The notes beneath the pieces are model-generated. The model was not told the origin of the DNA, made no database searches, and saw only the letters and a program-made list of their open reading frames with translations. From contig CALZYE010000003.1 in the NCBI GenBank assembly GCA_945830395.1, forward strand, positions 1 through 64,000: a stretch of DNA of 64,000 nucleotides, given 5' to 3'. Positions within the stretch are counted from its first letter, which is position 1. Every line of letters starts with the position of its first letter. A program made the position numbers and the translations under genes. Below are positions 17,822-27,746 of this stretch, piece by piece. The stretch is from an uncultured Clostridia bacterium. GTDB lineage: Bacteria; Bacillota; Clostridia; Peptostreptococcales; Anaerovoracaceae.

Positions 17822-18163
17822 TCATGGGTAGGTCAGATGGTCGCGTGCACAGGCATGAGGAAAGTCCGGGCTCCATAGGGCAAGGATGCCGTGATAACAT
17901 CCGGCGTAGGTAACTATAGGGAAAGTGCAACAGAAACATACCGCCGAAACGGGTAATGCCGTGGCAAGGTTGAAATGGTGAGGTAAGAGCTCACCGGCAG
18001 CATGGAGACATGCTGGCCGTGTAAACCCCATCCGGAGCAAGGTCGGTGGGAAAAAGGCGGCTGCCCGCTGCCTCCCAAGTGGTGGACCGCATGAGCATGC
18101 AGAGATGTATTGCCTAGATAGATGATCATCAAATACAGAACCCGGCTTATAGACCTGCCCATT
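17822..18163 (+). ncRNA. rnpB: RNase P RNA (bacterial class A-like)
   Basis: Conserved GAGGAAAGTCCGGGCTCCATAGGGCA...GGGTAATGCC...CAAATACAGAACCCGGCTTATAGACC. P1 closing stem TGGGTAGGTC/GACCTGCCCA; followed by a T-rich tract. Confidence 0.96.
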
Positions 18164-18228
18164 TTTTATTTTTTGATAATTGGATTTAAAAAGAATGATA
18201 CATAGATAGGAAGGAAAAAATTTTCAAC

Positions 18229-22600: not shown

Positions 22601-23877
22601 CGCCTTCAAATATCCCTGAAAAGAGAGTTGTTTTTACCAAAGACATGAAAAAATCTTACACCATATTAATTCCACAGATGTCGCCGATTCATTTTAAATA
22701 CATGAAGGAAGCCATAGGCTCATGTGGATATAATGTGGAATTGCTGCCTTCGGTAGATAAAAATTCTGTTGAGGAAGGCTTGAGATATATAAACAACGAT
22801 GTATGCTATCCGACTATAGTTACACTCGGGCAGATAATTTCCGCTTTAAAATCGGGGAAATATGATTTAAACAGGACCGCGGTACTCATGTCTCAGACAG
22901 GAGGCGGATGCAGGGCAAGCAACTATGTAGCGCTTCTTCGCAAAGCCCTCAAAGACCTGGATATGGGTCAGATTCCGGTGGTTTCATTCAATGCGGTGGG
23001 ACTTGAGAAAAATCCGGGATTCAGAATAACCTCGAAAATGGCGTTTATGCTTACAATTGCGTGTATTTACGGGGATTTGATTATGAGAGTTCTGTATGCC
23101 ACAAGACCTTATGAGAAAATTGCCGGAACATGTGATAAGCTGTTAGAAAAATGGTATCAGCCTGTGGTTGATAATATCCTCAACTTCAGAAGGAAACAGT
23201 ATGTTAAAAACATAACTGAAATAATTTCAGATTTTGACAATGTGGAGAGAACAGGAGAAATTAAACCCAAGGTCGGTGTAGTAGGAGAGATTCTCGTAAA
23301 ATACCACCCCAATGCCAATAACGATATTGTGGGAACTATTGAAGATGAAGGCGGAGAAGCCGTCGTTTTGGATTTAATTGACTTTTTCCTATACGGTTTT
23401 GAAAGCGAGAGGTTTAACTACGAACACCTTTCAGGAAAATGGAAGGTTATGAAAATAAACGAGATTGCCAAGAACTTAGTGGAGAAATTGAGGGAAGCCG
23501 TACGGGAACCTTTGAGAAACAGCAAACACTTCATAGCACCTGACAGAATTGAAAAAACGGCAGATGCGGCATCAGAAATCCTTTCCATAGGGAATCAGTG
23601 CGGCGAAGGCTGGCTTCTTACGGGAGAAATGGCAGAGTTAATAAAAAACGGCGTCGAAAATATCGTGTGCCTTCAGCCATTTGCTTGTCTTCCCAATCAT
23701 GTTACCGGAAAGGGAATGATGAAAGCTATTAGAAAGAGGTACCCTGAAGCCAATATAACAGCCATAGACTTTGATCCCGGTGCCAGCGATGTAAATCAGC
23801 TTAATAGAATAAAGCTTATGATGAGCACCGCACATAAAAATTTAGAAAAGAAACAAAAAAATATTTCAAATGACTAA
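19636..23877 (+). CDS. 2-hydroxyacyl-CoA dehydratase activase / dehydratase fusion protein (two BcrAD/BadFG ATPase domains + DUF2229 + HgdD-like)
   Basis: Two ASKHA activase domains (MRLGIDIGSTTVKLVV ... NGTCAGGTGAFIDQMA; VFLGIDAGSTTTKAAL ... NEACSSGCGSFLETYA) followed by CoA-substrate dehydratase-like regions in one 1413-aa ORF. Confidence 0.92.
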   Translation: MRLGIDIGSTTVKLVVTDAEGNIRYSRYERHLSNVFEKVNELIEDMYDEMGDIKLRAVITGSGGLSLAKLIKIRFEQEVIACSKAVEELIPDTEVAVELGGEDAKITFYGATVEQRMNGTCAGGTGAFIDQMAILLNTDAMGLNEAAKRHKMVYPIAARCGVFAKTDIQPLINEGASIPDLAASIFQAVVNQTISGLACGHVIKGNVAFLGGPLSFLSELRKAFVNTLNLKEDEIIFPEDSKYFVAIGAAMLAKTQPEIMLSDIIYRMKNADMVSMSETKHVKPLFNNDEEYDEFILRHEKDKINRKDIKKVKGNVFLGIDAGSTTTKAALIDEEKNLLYSFYKGNQGNPVDAVKTMLYELYDQLPQEAVIANTAVTGYGENLIKAAFRADFGEIETMAHYKAAEEFLPGVDFILDIGGQDMKCMKIKDGAIYNIMLNEACSSGCGSFLETYAKSVNLDTYAFAKEALFAENPVDLGTRCTVFMNSKVKQAQKEGASIGDISAGLSYSVIKNALYKVIKLRNSENTGKKIVVQGGTFMNDAVLRSLEQIIEKNVVRPDIAGLMGAYGCALIAKNQYVEGTRSGILERSELDYFQMEHSNGRCKQCENQCILTINKFSDGTRFVTGNRCEKGAGGAMHNKQVPNLYDYKLRRLFNYKPLDDFEASRGTVAIPRVLNMYEDYPFWFTLFTELKFQVKLSPLSTKAIYNLGIDSISSDTACYPAKLVHGHIKWLVDKGHKFIFYPSLNYEENEDKKSPNHYNCPIVATYPEVIANNMDDILEEKGVNFLHPFLPFDNDTRLVKELKLAFENFHIKKDEIIKAVGKARKEHHRFKSDMRKQGEYAIKYARDHGKKIVILAGRPYHLDPEINHGIDKMINSFDLVVVTEDSVSSMVDLARPIRVLDQWMYHSRLYKAATFAGKHNDIELIQLNSFGCGLDAVTTDQVEEICNRNNKLYTVLKIDEVSNLGAAKIRVRSLKAAMEEREKNDIKATPSNIPEKRVVFTKDMKKSYTILIPQMSPIHFKYMKEAIGSCGYNVELLPSVDKNSVEEGLRYINNDVCYPTIVTLGQIISALKSGKYDLNRTAVLMSQTGGGCRASNYVALLRKALKDLDMGQIPVVSFNAVGLEKNPGFRITSKMAFMLTIACIYGDLIMRVLYATRPYEKIAGTCDKLLEKWYQPVVDNILNFRRKQYVKNITEIISDFDNVERTGEIKPKVGVVGEILVKYHPNANNDIVGTIEDEGGEAVVLDLIDFFLYGFESERFNYEHLSGKWKVMKINEIAKNLVEKLREAVREPLRNSKHFIAPDRIEKTADAASEILSIGNQCGEGWLLTGEMAELIKNGVENIVCLQPFACLPNHVTGKGMMKAIRKRYPEANITAIDFDPGASDVNQLNRIKLMMSTAHKNLEKKQKNISND

Positions 23878-23885
23878 AATGGTTA

Positions 23886-23914
23886 TTGACTTCCCCTTAC
23901 ATGGGTGTTAGCAT
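23886..23914 (+). promoter_or_regulatory. Candidate promoter for the VaFE-gene leader RNA
   Basis: TTGACT - 17 bp - TAGCAT just after the stop of the dehydratase fusion gene. Confidence 0.4.
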
Positions 23915-23920
23915 GGAATT

Positions 23921-24121
23921 GTAAAAAAATGTCAACGGGAAATCAATTGGGACTTCTTGGACTTTGAAAACCGCTTATGCCGTATTTCAAGGTTTATGAG
24001 GTCCTATTTTCTTTAGATTTCTTATGACAGCTCATGAATGTAAAATAGGAAATCAATGTACTTAAATACTTTCATGTCATTTTTTATGAAAGGCTTTGCA
24101 CAATGCAAAGCTATTTTTTTG
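23921..24121 (+). ncRNA. Candidate structured 5' leader RNA ending in an intrinsic terminator (possible riboswitch/attenuator)
   Basis: Several helices visible by eye: ACTTTGAAA/TTTCAAGGT (23961-23993), CCTATTTT/AAAATAGG (24003-24049), CTTTCAT/ATGAAAG (24069-24092), then the terminator. GGAAATCAAT occurs twice (23938, 24048). Confidence 0.5.
24093..24121 (+). terminator. Intrinsic terminator upstream of the VaFE surface protein gene
   Basis: GCTTTGCA-CAA-TGCAAAGC followed by TATTTTTTTG; located between the putative leader and the RBS/GTG start. Confidence 0.8.
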
Positions 24122-24149
24122 TCAGAAAAATAATATTGGGGGAGAAAAA

Positions 24150-26663
24150 GTGGATATTATAAGAAAAAACAAAGGGAATTTTTTAATCGTTATTGTGATG
24201 CTTCTGTTTATTGCCAGTTTTAATTTCATATTTGATACAGCAGATGGAAAAAACGCCTATGGAATGACAAGATCAAAATATTCTTGGGACAACAATGTAA
24301 ATGACAAGACGCTGAACAGAAAAAACGGTACACCGTACGGAACAGGTTCAGGGCAACTTGTGTGCACCACATATGTTTCGTGGGCATTACATAATCTGTA
24401 CAAGGTCATTGGGTACCCGTCAGGCGGAATAGTAACCACGCATTATAACTGGTTGAGAAACAATGCAAAACGCGTGTGTACAATTTCATCTCCGTCTTTG
24501 TATAAGAAATACAAGAAAAGGATTAAACCGGGAGACATAGTAGTTTATAATACAGGCAGCAACTTTAGAGGTATATGGGTACACATAGCTATAGTAGGAG
24601 GGGATTCCAGAACACTGCATCATGCGATAAGCAGCGGAGTAAGTTACAAATATACTGTCGGAGGTTGGCTTGGAGAAGCGGCAGATGTGAGAAAACAGGC
24701 AGCTTCCTGCAAAGTCTACAGGCTTTTATCTCCAAAGGAAGGAAAACTGACCGTAACAAAGTCGGCAAGTAAAAATATAAAAATCGTGAGTAAACTAAAA
24801 AATTATAGCCTAAAGGGGGCAGTTTATAAAGTCTACAAGAAAAAATCAAAACATGAAGTTCATACATTTAAAACCGATGAAAAAGGGAAAAGCCATACAT
24901 GGACTGCAAAACCCGGGACTTATTATATTAAGGAGACGAAAGCACCCAAACATTTTAAAAAGGATAAAAAATGGTATAAGGTGATTCTTAAACCGGGAGA
25001 AAAAAGAACATTCAAAGCAAGTGATATGCCGCTGTTTACAAAATCCGGATTTTTGCTGAGAAAAATGTCCGAAAATACCAAGAAACCCCTTCAAGGGGCA
25101 ATATACGAGGTGAAATATTACGACAATGACCACAATCAGATTAAAGGAAAACCGGTAAAAAAATGGAAGATAAAAACTGACATAAACGGCTATGCGGACC
25201 TTGGCAATAATGAACATTTAGAAGAAGGCAGCCCTTTTAGAGATGAAAAGAAGGAGGTTGTCTTACCCTTCGGTACATATTCATACAGAGAGGTAAAAGC
25301 GCCTGAAGGCTATGAACTGGACAATAAAACATACACAGCTAAGCAGGTAAATGATGTTAAATACAACATAAAGAATGTGTCTGATAAAAGTATTACACCT
25401 GAGATTAAAACAAGAGCAATGGACGAAAATACCAATTCCAATATTTTATCATTCGGAAAGAATACAAAAGTTTCGGACAGAATTAAATATTATAATCTTG
25501 AAAAAGGTGAAAGCTATACGATTAAAGGAAGAATTGTAAACAAAGCAACAGAAAAAACCGAGAGCAGCAGCGGAAAACCTGTAATTTCTGAAAAAACTTT
25601 CACACCAAAGGAAAGGGACGGTGAAATTACCCTGAATTATTTATTAGATTCGAGAAAATTGTCGGGAAAAACATTGGTAATATTTGAAGAACTGTATTTT
25701 AAAGGGAAAAAAATCGCTTCACATTGCGATAAATTCGACTCAAAACAGACTCTTTATTCACCACATATAAAGACAAAGGCTCTGGACGACTGTACCAAAG
25801 ATTCCATCACTCAATTATCAAAGAAGACCACAGTGATTGACAAGGTTAAGTATAGCAATTTAAATCCCGGTGAAAATTATAAGATATACGGAACGATAGT
25901 GGATAAGAAGACAGGAAAACCTGTTTTAAACAGCAAGGGAGAGAAAATTACAGGTGAAAAAATATTTAGAGCAGAGGCATCGGATGGCGAGGCAGAAGTT
26001 CAATTCAACCTGAATACAGAATATCTGGCGGGAAAAACTACAGTAATATTTGAAAAATGTTTTTACAATAATAAATTGATTGCCGTTCACCACGACATAA
26101 AAGATAAAAACCAGACCGTTAAAATTCCAAGCTTGAGAACCAAGGCCAAAATAAATACAGGCGAAAATAATCCTGGCGATGAAAAAGGATTTGTTTCGGT
26201 TGTTGACAGGGTTAAATATTATAATTTGATTGCAGGTAAATCCTACAGTATTTCGGGAATTTTAATGGATAAGGAAAGTGGAAAGACGCTGTTAAGTGCA
26301 GAAAATAAAACTATAAAAGCCGAAAAAAACTTTATTCCTAAAGGTTCAAAGGGGGATTTAGAAATTGAATTTAAAGTTGAGAGGAAAGTTTTGCGCGGAA
26401 AGAGAGTTGTCGTTTTTGAAGATTGTTTTTTGAATAATATAAAGATTGCAAGTCACGCTGATATTAACGATAAGGATCAAACAGTGGAAATGGAGCATGT
26501 TATACCTGAGGCGAAAGATAAACAGAAGGAAAAGACAAACAGTCACAGGGTTCAAACGGGAGATAAATCTACGCTGTGGAAGTTTATTATTTTACTGATT
26601 TCCACTCAAATTTTGCTTGCCGGGATTATTTTTACCAAATTCTTGAAAACTACCATTAGGTAG
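24150..26663 (+). CDS. Secreted surface protein: cysteine-peptidase-like (NlpC/P60 or CHAP-like) head, two SpaA/Cna-B-like domains, three VaFE (T-Q ester-type) repeats, C-terminal TM anchor
   Basis: GTG start preceded by GGGGGAG. Signal peptide MDIIRKNKGNFLIVIVMLLFIASFNFIF; VCTTYVSWAL...KPGDIVVY...HIAIVGG; APEGYELDNKTY; VIFEELYF, VIFEKCFY, VVFEDCFL; C-terminus RVQTGDKSTLWKFIILLISTQILLAGIIFTKFLKTTIR. The tracked ORF start (24096, TTG) lies inside the terminator. Confidence 0.8.
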   Translation: MDIIRKNKGNFLIVIVMLLFIASFNFIFDTADGKNAYGMTRSKYSWDNNVNDKTLNRKNGTPYGTGSGQLVCTTYVSWALHNLYKVIGYPSGGIVTTHYNWLRNNAKRVCTISSPSLYKKYKKRIKPGDIVVYNTGSNFRGIWVHIAIVGGDSRTLHHAISSGVSYKYTVGGWLGEAADVRKQAASCKVYRLLSPKEGKLTVTKSASKNIKIVSKLKNYSLKGAVYKVYKKKSKHEVHTFKTDEKGKSHTWTAKPGTYYIKETKAPKHFKKDKKWYKVILKPGEKRTFKASDMPLFTKSGFLLRKMSENTKKPLQGAIYEVKYYDNDHNQIKGKPVKKWKIKTDINGYADLGNNEHLEEGSPFRDEKKEVVLPFGTYSYREVKAPEGYELDNKTYTAKQVNDVKYNIKNVSDKSITPEIKTRAMDENTNSNILSFGKNTKVSDRIKYYNLEKGESYTIKGRIVNKATEKTESSSGKPVISEKTFTPKERDGEITLNYLLDSRKLSGKTLVIFEELYFKGKKIASHCDKFDSKQTLYSPHIKTKALDDCTKDSITQLSKKTTVIDKVKYSNLNPGENYKIYGTIVDKKTGKPVLNSKGEKITGEKIFRAEASDGEAEVQFNLNTEYLAGKTTVIFEKCFYNNKLIAVHHDIKDKNQTVKIPSLRTKAKINTGENNPGDEKGFVSVVDRVKYYNLIAGKSYSISGILMDKESGKTLLSAENKTIKAEKNFIPKGSKGDLEIEFKVERKVLRGKRVVVFEDCFLNNIKIASHADINDKDQTVEMEHVIPEAKDKQKEKTNSHRVQTGDKSTLWKFIILLISTQILLAGIIFTKFLKTTIR
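25396..26492 (+). repeat. Three tandem VaFE-like protein repeats (coding repeats)
   Basis: Each unit starts [EHL][IL][KR]T[KR]A and ends D[SK][KD]QT: IKTRAMD..KQTLY, IKTKALD..NQTVK, LRTKAKI..DQTVE, with a central V[IV]FE motif. Confidence 0.75.
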
Positions 26664-26671
26664 TGTATAAT
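26643..26671 (+). promoter_or_regulatory. Sigma-A promoter for yebC overlapping the end of the VaFE CDS
   Basis: TTGAAA - 17 bp - TATAAT. Confidence 0.7.
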
Positions 26672-26719
26672 ATACGAGTTATTTTTAATAAGAAATATTA
26701 TACAGAAGGAGGTGTCTCC

Positions 26720-27439
26720 ATGGGAAGACACGGTACAATAGCAGGAAGAAAAGCGGCACAGGATTCTAAGAGATCCGCTCTTTTTACCAAATACGCAAAG
26801 ACCATAACAGTTGCGGCTAAGGACGGGGGAGACCCTGAGTATAATTCTGCCCTTCGTGTTGCTATCGAAAAGGCAAAGGGCATAGGAATGCCGAATGACA
26901 ATATAAATCGTGCAATTAAAAAAGGTACGGGAGAACTGGGTGGTGCCTCGTATGAAGAACTTAAATTTGAAGGATATGGTGCAGGCGGAGTTGCCATTAT
27001 TGTTGATTGCCTTACGGACAATACAAACAGAACTACATCGGCAGTTCGATCTTCTTTTGATAAACACGGCGGAAATTTGGGAACACCGGGATGCGTTTCA
27101 TACATGTTCTCAAGAAAAGGTGTTATTCTGATTGAAAAAAGCGATGAAATTGATGAAGATGTTCTGATGGATGCAGCGCTTGAAGCAGGAGCGGAGGATA
27201 TGGTGAATAATGAAGACAGTTTTGAAATTATCGCAGAGCCTTCCGACTATCTTGCAGTGGATGAGGCACTTAGAAAGGCGGGGTACGATTTGGTTGAATC
27301 TGAAATAAGCTATGTTCCTTCGGTGGAAAGCACTCCTGATGAGAATGATCTTAAGAAATTAAAGAAGCTGGTGGATGTGCTTGAGGATAATGATGATGTG
27401 CAGTCGGTAAATACCAACTGTGCAATAGATTTGGAATAA
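26720..27439 (+). CDS. YebC/PmpR family DNA-binding regulatory protein
   Basis: MGRHGTIAGRKAAQDSKRSALFTKYAKTITVAAKDGGDPEYNSALR. Strong RBS AGAAGGAGGTG; start trimmed to 26720. Confidence 0.95.
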   Translation: MGRHGTIAGRKAAQDSKRSALFTKYAKTITVAAKDGGDPEYNSALRVAIEKAKGIGMPNDNINRAIKKGTGELGGASYEELKFEGYGAGGVAIIVDCLTDNTNRTTSAVRSSFDKHGGNLGTPGCVSYMFSRKGVILIEKSDEIDEDVLMDAALEAGAEDMVNNEDSFEIIAEPSDYLAVDEALRKAGYDLVESEISYVPSVESTPDENDLKKLKKLVDVLEDNDDVQSVNTNCAIDLE

Positions 27440-27563: not shown

Positions 27564-27569
27564 TTAGTT

Positions 27570-27746
27570 GCCTGGAACATTTGTTGAGGGCTCTTAATTG
27601 AACCTACAACACTTAATAGGGAATCCGGAGTTTATTGCGGGCTGTCATGCCTCTTAGAGAGGACGGCAAAACACGATGGCAGGATACCCACCTATCTTTG
27701 CGATAGGCGTCAATTAAGTCCTGACGGTGTTTCTGGGTTATTTTTA
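27570..27746 (+). ncRNA. ssrS: Probable 6S RNA (rod-shaped ncRNA with central bubble)
   Basis: ~177 nt. Closing stem CCTGGAACA (27571-27579)/TGTTTCTGGG (27728-27737) and CTTAATTGA (27593-27601)/TCAATTAAG (27710-27718); 3' bubble hairpin CCTATC-TTTGC-GATAGG; terminal stem CTGTCAT/ATGGCAG. T-rich end; no ORF. Confidence 0.6.

What the first reader, a model, noticed from the sequence alone, without database searches (positions are those of the whole stretch)
23886..24121. Candidate structured leader RNA (riboswitch or attenuator) upstream of the VaFE surface protein
Seen: about 200 nt of non-coding sequence between a plausible promoter (TTGACT-17-TAGCAT) and a terminator (GCTTTGCA-CAA-TGCAAAGC-TATTTTTTT). 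The terminator sits just before the RBS/GTG of the surface protein. At least three long-range helices are visible. TGGGAC (23948-23953) can pair with GTCCTA (24001-24006), but those bases overlap the 5' arm of CCTATTTT/AAAATAGG (24003-24049), so the two helices compete. AAACC (23968-23972) could also pair with GGTTT (23991-23995) instead of the TTGAAA/TTTCAA helix. GGAAATCAAT occurs twice, 110 nt apart, once in the 5' strand and once straddling helix B. Inference: mutually exclusive helices before a terminator suggest ligand- or protein-controlled readthrough. I do not recognise it as a standard c-di-GMP, c-di-AMP, T-box, SAM or cobalamin element.
Basis: partly seen in the sequence, partly recalled or inferred. 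Interest (0 to 1): 0.72.

Follow-up and report, generated by a model that had tools for sequence, protein, structure and literature searches.

The report
Tandem terminators before surface-protein gene
The stretch is a real promoter followed by two transcription stop signals that sit directly in front of a surface-protein gene; it is probably not a riboswitch, but the same 'stop signals before the gene' layout recurs in front of related surface-protein genes in other species far more often than chance, so these genes are probably switched on by letting RNA polymerase run through the stops.

Summary
The riboswitch reading fails. No Rfam family matches. The two 'competing' helices are 10-14 kcal/mol off optimum, and an 8-bp inverted repeat of that kind appears in 60% of shuffles. 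Nothing sequesters the terminator arm. In the only ortholog (Eubacterium minutum, same gene, same site) the promoter and first 20 nt are conserved, while the rest of the leader is unrelated and unstructured. That layout recurs: a terminator ending 45 nt or less before the start codon precedes 21/96 SpaA/T-Q genes against 13/319 ordinary genes (p=5e-7); two in tandem precede 12/96 against 0/319 (p=1e-8). Four such genes in the genus share a motif at one fixed distance from the -10 box, its only matches in 17 genomes. Best reading: regulated promoter plus terminator-gated expression, with control at the promoter/initial transcript. How readthrough is obtained is inferred, not shown.

The parts
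23886..23914 (+). Promoter, TTGACT-17-TAGCAT. TTGACTTCCCCTTACA (23886-23901) is identical in the E. minutum ortholog and at one other promoter-like site in the same genome.
   Evidence: the 16-mer occurs 3 times in 351 family genomes, 2 in this genome and 1 in E. minutum
23920..23935 (+). Initial-transcribed motif TGTAAAAAAATGTCAA, a TGTAAA-N4-TGTMAA direct repeat over the predicted start site; DNA operator or 5'-end RNA element
   Evidence: identical register from the -10 box in window, E. minutum, G001 and G008; only 4 matches in 17 genus genomes
23948..24014 (+). Long hairpin (stem 23948-24006, -28.4 kcal/mol) followed by TTTTCTTT: read here as a first, long-stem intrinsic terminator.
   Evidence: (z -7.2); the tail is read directly from the sequence
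23938..23947 (+). First GGAAATCAAT copy; can pair with GATTTC 24016-24021
24048..24057 (+). Second GGAAATCAAT copy; pairs with the same GATTTC in the MFE
24069..24092 (+). Small hairpin abutting the terminator (CTTTCAT.../ATGAAAG)
   Evidence: MFE; local z -4.7 for 24066-24095
24092..24120 (+). Intrinsic terminator 2: GGCTTTGCA-CAA-TGCAAAGCT, then ATTTTTTT, -10.6 kcal/mol
24138..24144 (+). Shine-Dalgarno sequence GGGGGAG
24150..26663 (+). CHAP - SpaA x2 - T-Q ester (VaFE) x3 surface protein, 837 aa, GTG start
   Evidence: PF18202 4e-84, PF17802 3e-20, PF05257 3e-6

Best explanation
The region is the control region of a CHAP/VaFE surface-protein gene that lies, with its own promoter, between an activase-type gene (DUF2229/BcrAD) and yebC. 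A sigma-70-type promoter carrying conserved regulatory DNA (TTGACTTCCCCTTACA and a TGTAAA direct repeat over the start site) makes a transcript that meets two intrinsic terminators, the second right in front of the ribosome-binding site. Most transcripts should end there as a short RNA of up to about 200 nt; the protein is made only from polymerases that pass both stops. The leader between promoter and terminators is filler with no conserved aptamer. Control acts at the promoter/initial transcript: by a DNA-binding regulator, by factor-dependent processive antitermination, or both. Shown by sequence: the parts, their order, conservation of the promoter part and not of the leader, and over-representation of the layout. 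Inferred: that the terminators work, that readthrough is regulated, and by what.
For: Parts and lack of room for a promoter after the terminator. The E. minutum ortholog at the same site keeps promoter and first 20 nt (82% over 51 bp, E 6e-8) and has a strong terminator plus four weaker hairpin-T-tract units before the gene, but no leader similarity or excess structure. Terminator ending 0-45 nt before the start: 21/96 SpaA/T-Q genes vs 13/319 (p=4.6e-7). Two terminators: 12/96 vs 0/319 (p=1.3e-8). Clear promoter-terminator-terminator-RBS cases in G006, G008 (two genes) and G005. Promoter motif in the same register in four surface genes. Relatives without the gene lack the promoter 16-mer and mostly keep activase directly before yebC.
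Against: No RNA data: terminators and promoter are predictions. Many of the 21 loci, above all those outside the genus, show no recognisable promoter upstream of the terminator, so they may be ordinary ends of upstream genes with unrecognised promoters. Loci are not all independent (four are one homologous group). The four-gene motif was derived from the four genes it describes. A terminator before the RBS also occurs at about 4% of ordinary genes.
Confidence: 0.55

Rival explanations
1. Riboswitch or other metabolite/protein-sensing attenuator: the leader folds into alternative structures that hide or expose the terminator.
For: Strong overall fold; GGAAATC copies 1 and 2 compete for GATTTC within 1.7 kcal/mol.
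Against: No Rfam match; no structure sequesters the terminator arm, and the best terminator-free fold is 8.2 kcal/mol worse; no conservation in the ortholog; claimed competing helices at chance level.
Confidence: 0.05
2. A free-standing small RNA gene of about 200 nt that happens to lie upstream, with the surface gene expressed by incidental readthrough.
For: Promoter, compact fold and terminator make a complete small-RNA gene.
Against: RNA sequence not conserved in the ortholog although its promoter is; the same layout sits before other surface genes with unrelated sequence between.
Confidence: 0.15
3. Passive insulation: terminators end activase (or neighbour) transcripts, the surface gene is simply weakly expressed by leak, nothing is regulated at this step.
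For: No terminator lies between the activase stop (23877) and 23886; many loci outside the genus fit upstream gene - terminators - gene; terminators insulating mobile-element genes are documented (PMC11658703, PMC8955417).
Against: Here the gene's own conserved promoter lies upstream of the terminators, so insulation would silence it too; promoter motif and terminators occur together in 4/4 cases.
Confidence: 0.22
4. Invertible-DNA phase switch of the C. difficile cwpV type (from memory), with the terminator-bearing orientation captured here.
For: Terminator between promoter and surface-protein gene.
Against: No flanking inverted repeats: only a 14-nt pair 31 nt apart and an unrelated 18-nt 78% pair.
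Confidence: 0.02

Closest known systems
Processive antitermination in Gram-positive mobile elements: Tn916 canT with T1-T3 (PMC11658703) and pLS20 conAn (PMC8955417)
   Same: Intrinsic terminators placed before genes that are expressed only from one promoter whose polymerases are made terminator-resistant; at least two of the T-Q genes examined (L063, L211) follow a gene with an ICE ParB-type C-terminus.
   Different: The window gene is chromosomal, next to housekeeping genes; no conAn/canT homology was shown; one gene, not a long operon.
Lambda Q / pR'-tR' antitermination (DNA site near the promoter, per PMC11658703)
   Same: Regulatory sequence at promoter and first transcribed bases, then terminator(s) within about 200 nt.
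   Different: No Q-like protein identified; resemblance of layout only.
LoaP (NusG-type) antitermination (PMC12691694)
   Same: Would act from a leader to pass terminators.
   Different: A single NusG-domain hit in the genome, presumably NusG itself; no LoaP candidate.
c-di-GMP riboswitches before adhesin/pilin genes in C. difficile (PMC3649979)
   Same: Terminator before surface-protein genes.
   Different: Aptamer absent here and in 20 related loci.
WalR (YycF) box TGTWAH-N5-TGTWAH (PMC9210968)
   Same: Direct repeat of TGTAAA-like half-sites near genes of cell-wall enzymes; the window protein has a CHAP domain.
   Different: Spacer is 4, not 5; no binding data.

Membership tests
Known riboswitch/leader families (Rfam 15) | Covariance-model match at gathering score | tested here: not met
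   best chance match E 0.15, far below gathering score; no riboswitch at 20 related loci
Attenuator/riboswitch (mechanistic class) | Alternative structure that excludes the terminator | tested here: not met
   terminator forms in both near-optimal folds; best terminator-free fold 8.2 kcal/mol worse
Attenuator/riboswitch (mechanistic class) | Aptamer conserved in orthologous leaders | tested here: not met
   ortholog leader unrelated, z = 0.0
Premature-termination (terminator-gated) control | Intrinsic terminator between promoter and RBS with no promoter in between | tested here: met
Premature-termination (terminator-gated) control | Terminated short RNA and regulated readthrough | not testable with these tools
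   Needs Term-seq/Northern
Processive antitermination (conAn/canT/Q type) | Cis element near the promoter that makes polymerase pass several terminators | tested here: inconclusive
   Conserved promoter-proximal motif with tandem terminators; function untested
LoaP | Extra NusG paralog | tested here: not met
   one NusG-domain hit in the genome
WalR-type operator | TGTWAH-N5-TGTWAH | tested here: not met
   Spacer is N4 in window, E. minutum and G001
cwpV-type DNA inversion switch | Inverted repeats flanking the terminator segment | tested here: not met

The most novel reading that the evidence does not exclude
The conserved promoter/initial-transcript element (-10, 5 nt, YGKRAAARAATGTMAA) is a loading site for an undescribed, chromosomally encoded processive antitermination system dedicated to surface adhesins in this genus, letting polymerase pass two or more terminators; surface-protein genes across the family use terminator gating as a general on/off device.
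Probability: 0.15. Interest if true: 0.8.

Novelty: new variant of a known kind. Interest (0 to 1): 0.5.

Why it matters
If terminator gating is general for VaFE/SpaA surface proteins, expression of a large and little-studied class of adhesins in oral and gut anaerobes is decided after transcription has started, by passing stop signals. It would extend mobile-element-style antitermination to chromosomal adhesins, and it gives a simple test (readthrough assay) and a motif to pull out the responsible factor.

Tried and rejected
Rfam at gathering and permissive thresholds: nothing. DNA search in 40 relatives: only the promoter piece in E. minutum. Covariation of the leader could not be tested: a single ortholog with an unrelated leader. 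Two scans of genome contigs with the protein found only E. minutum. Inversion switch: no repeats. LoaP: single NusG hit. Leader peptides: ORFs such as MSTGNQLGLLGL (23929) lack a good RBS and the ortholog reads ATG-TAA there; not pursued. TTGACTTCCCCTTACA as a wider regulon: only three exact sites in the family, too few. MerR-type promoter considered and dropped: spacer is 17, no clear dyad. C. difficile RCd2 considered and dropped: it is antisense.

Full report
What is there. The sequence at 23886-24150 contains a promoter (TTGACT-17-TAGCAT), about 200 nt of non-coding DNA, an intrinsic terminator (24092-24120), GGGGGAG and a GTG start at 24150. The gene encodes an 837-aa CHAP/SpaA/T-Q ester (VaFE) surface protein. 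Upstream is a 1413-aa activase-type protein (DUF2229/BcrAD); downstream are yebC, 6S RNA (27566-27743) and a DNA polymerase I-like gene. No Rfam family matches the leader.

Structure. The leader folds much better than shuffles (z -5.9), but one hairpin carries nearly all of it: 23948-24006, -28.4 kcal/mol (z -7.2 for 23946-24008). It is followed at once by TTTTCTTT, so I read it as a long-stem terminator, T1; that reading rests on sequence alone. The two GGAAATC copies do compete for GATTTC (24016-24021), first copy early and second later, within 1.7 kcal/mol, but the terminator forms in both cases; the best fold without the terminator is 8.2 kcal/mol worse. So no antiterminator is visible.

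Comparison. The only ortholog found, among 351 family genomes and two scans of GTDB representatives, is in Eubacterium minutum ATCC 700079, at the same place between activase and yebC. Its promoter and first 20 transcribed bases are 82% identical over 51 bp. The rest of its leader is unrelated (local alignment within the shuffle range) and has no excess structure (z 0.0); it ends in a strong terminator (-17.5) and four weaker hairpin-T-tract units. Seven other genus members checked lack the gene at this site; six keep activase directly before yebC, while G008 has other surface-type genes inserted there, again after a promoter and two terminators. A metabolite-binding leader would be expected to persist at this distance (activase C-terminal region 76% identical); it does not, while the promoter does.

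A recurring layout. Looking at other surface genes I found the same order, near-consensus promoter, short leader, one or more terminators, RBS, in G006 (L157), G008 (L156 and the activase-site gene in L052) and, with a weaker promoter, G005 (L134). A systematic count with one script for both sets gave a terminator (-8 kcal/mol or better) whose T-tract ends 0-45 nt before the start codon in 9/58 SpaA genes of the genus, 12/38 T-Q genes outside it, and 13/319 background genes; p = 4.6e-7 overall, 4e-5 against background genes with a gap of at least 80 nt. Loop limits differed slightly between the two counts (12 nt; 14 nt). Two such terminators within 200 nt, same settings for both sets: 12/96 against 0/319, p = 1.3e-8. 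Caveats: loci are partly related (L181, L183, L184, L189 are one group); start codons and terminators are predicted; many loci outside the genus have no recognisable promoter ahead of the terminator, so these may be ordinary gene ends. The window itself counts as one-terminator in this script, because T1 has bulges that the scan does not allow.

A promoter-proximal motif. Aligned on the -10 box, the window, E. minutum, G001 (L122) and G008 (L156) promoters share, 5 nt after it and without gaps, YGKRAAARAATGTMAA. The pattern, with a loose -10 attached, has 12 matches in 351 family genomes (reversed control: 1); 4 are in the 17 genomes of this genus and are these four surface-gene promoters, and the 8 elsewhere are not in front of recognisable surface-protein genes. 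The pattern was built from the four, so the matches themselves prove nothing; what is informative is the identical register and the absence of other copies in the genus. All four genes have terminators downstream. The TGTAAA-N4-TGTMAA repeat resembles direct-repeat sites of OmpR-family regulators (WalR box TGTWAH-N5-TGTWAH, PMC9210968) but has a 4-nt spacer; binding is not shown. It could also act as the 5' end of the RNA.

Mechanism. Because only 29 nt separate T2 from the start codon, including the RBS, mRNA for the gene must cross T2 (inference from layout). I think most likely a regulated promoter plus terminator gating: transcripts mostly stop, protein is made from the fraction that passes. 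Whether the passing fraction is controlled (processive antitermination as in Tn916 canT, pLS20 conAn or lambda Q; PMC11658703, PMC8955417) or constant cannot be decided from sequence. LoaP is unlikely (one NusG hit). A riboswitch is unlikely. A free small RNA is possible as a by-product.

Novelty. Premature termination and antitermination are known kinds; enrichment of tandem terminators in front of VaFE/SpaA surface genes was not found in the papers searched, though that search was limited to open papers and few queries.

Noticed in passing
window 23886-23901 and G000:C2:3757-3772 (L064/L066): TTGACTTCCCCTTACA also forms the -35/spacer of a second promoter-like site in the same genome, 118 nt before a 134-aa gene (MSREWQQTRFKEF...) of unknown function; only three copies of this 16-mer exist in 351 family genomes.
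   Followed up: partly
window 23877-26720; L050, L052: The activase-yebC gap is a recurrent insertion site for surface-protein genes: VaFE in the window and E. minutum, two other surface-type genes in G008, none in six other genus members checked.
   Followed up: partly
L050 (E. minutum), about 198-330 bp downstream of the -35 box of the VaFE promoter: Four similar units of about 35 bp, each hairpin plus T-tract (GAGCAATCGCG...TTGCTTTTTT), in tandem between promoter and gene.
   Followed up: partly
L156 (G008), leader of the CHAP surface gene: An ORF ATG-GAA-AAG... (MEKNVKKTVETVRLFFL) starts near the predicted +1 and spans the first terminator, so translation of a leaderless peptide could disrupt it.
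   Followed up: no
L181, L183, L184, L189: A homologous group of T-Q genes with two terminators at about 80 and 37 nt before the start; stems differ in sequence while both hairpins are kept, and the second T-tract often runs into ATATATA, which might be a hidden -10.
   Followed up: partly
window 27566-27743 and 17825-18165: 6S RNA between yebC and the DNA polymerase I-like gene, and RNase P RNA upstream; both ordinary Rfam matches.
   Followed up: no
L104 775-832: pemK RNA motif (RF02913) in a G014 contig that also carries a SpaA gene with a terminator abutting its RBS.
   Followed up: no
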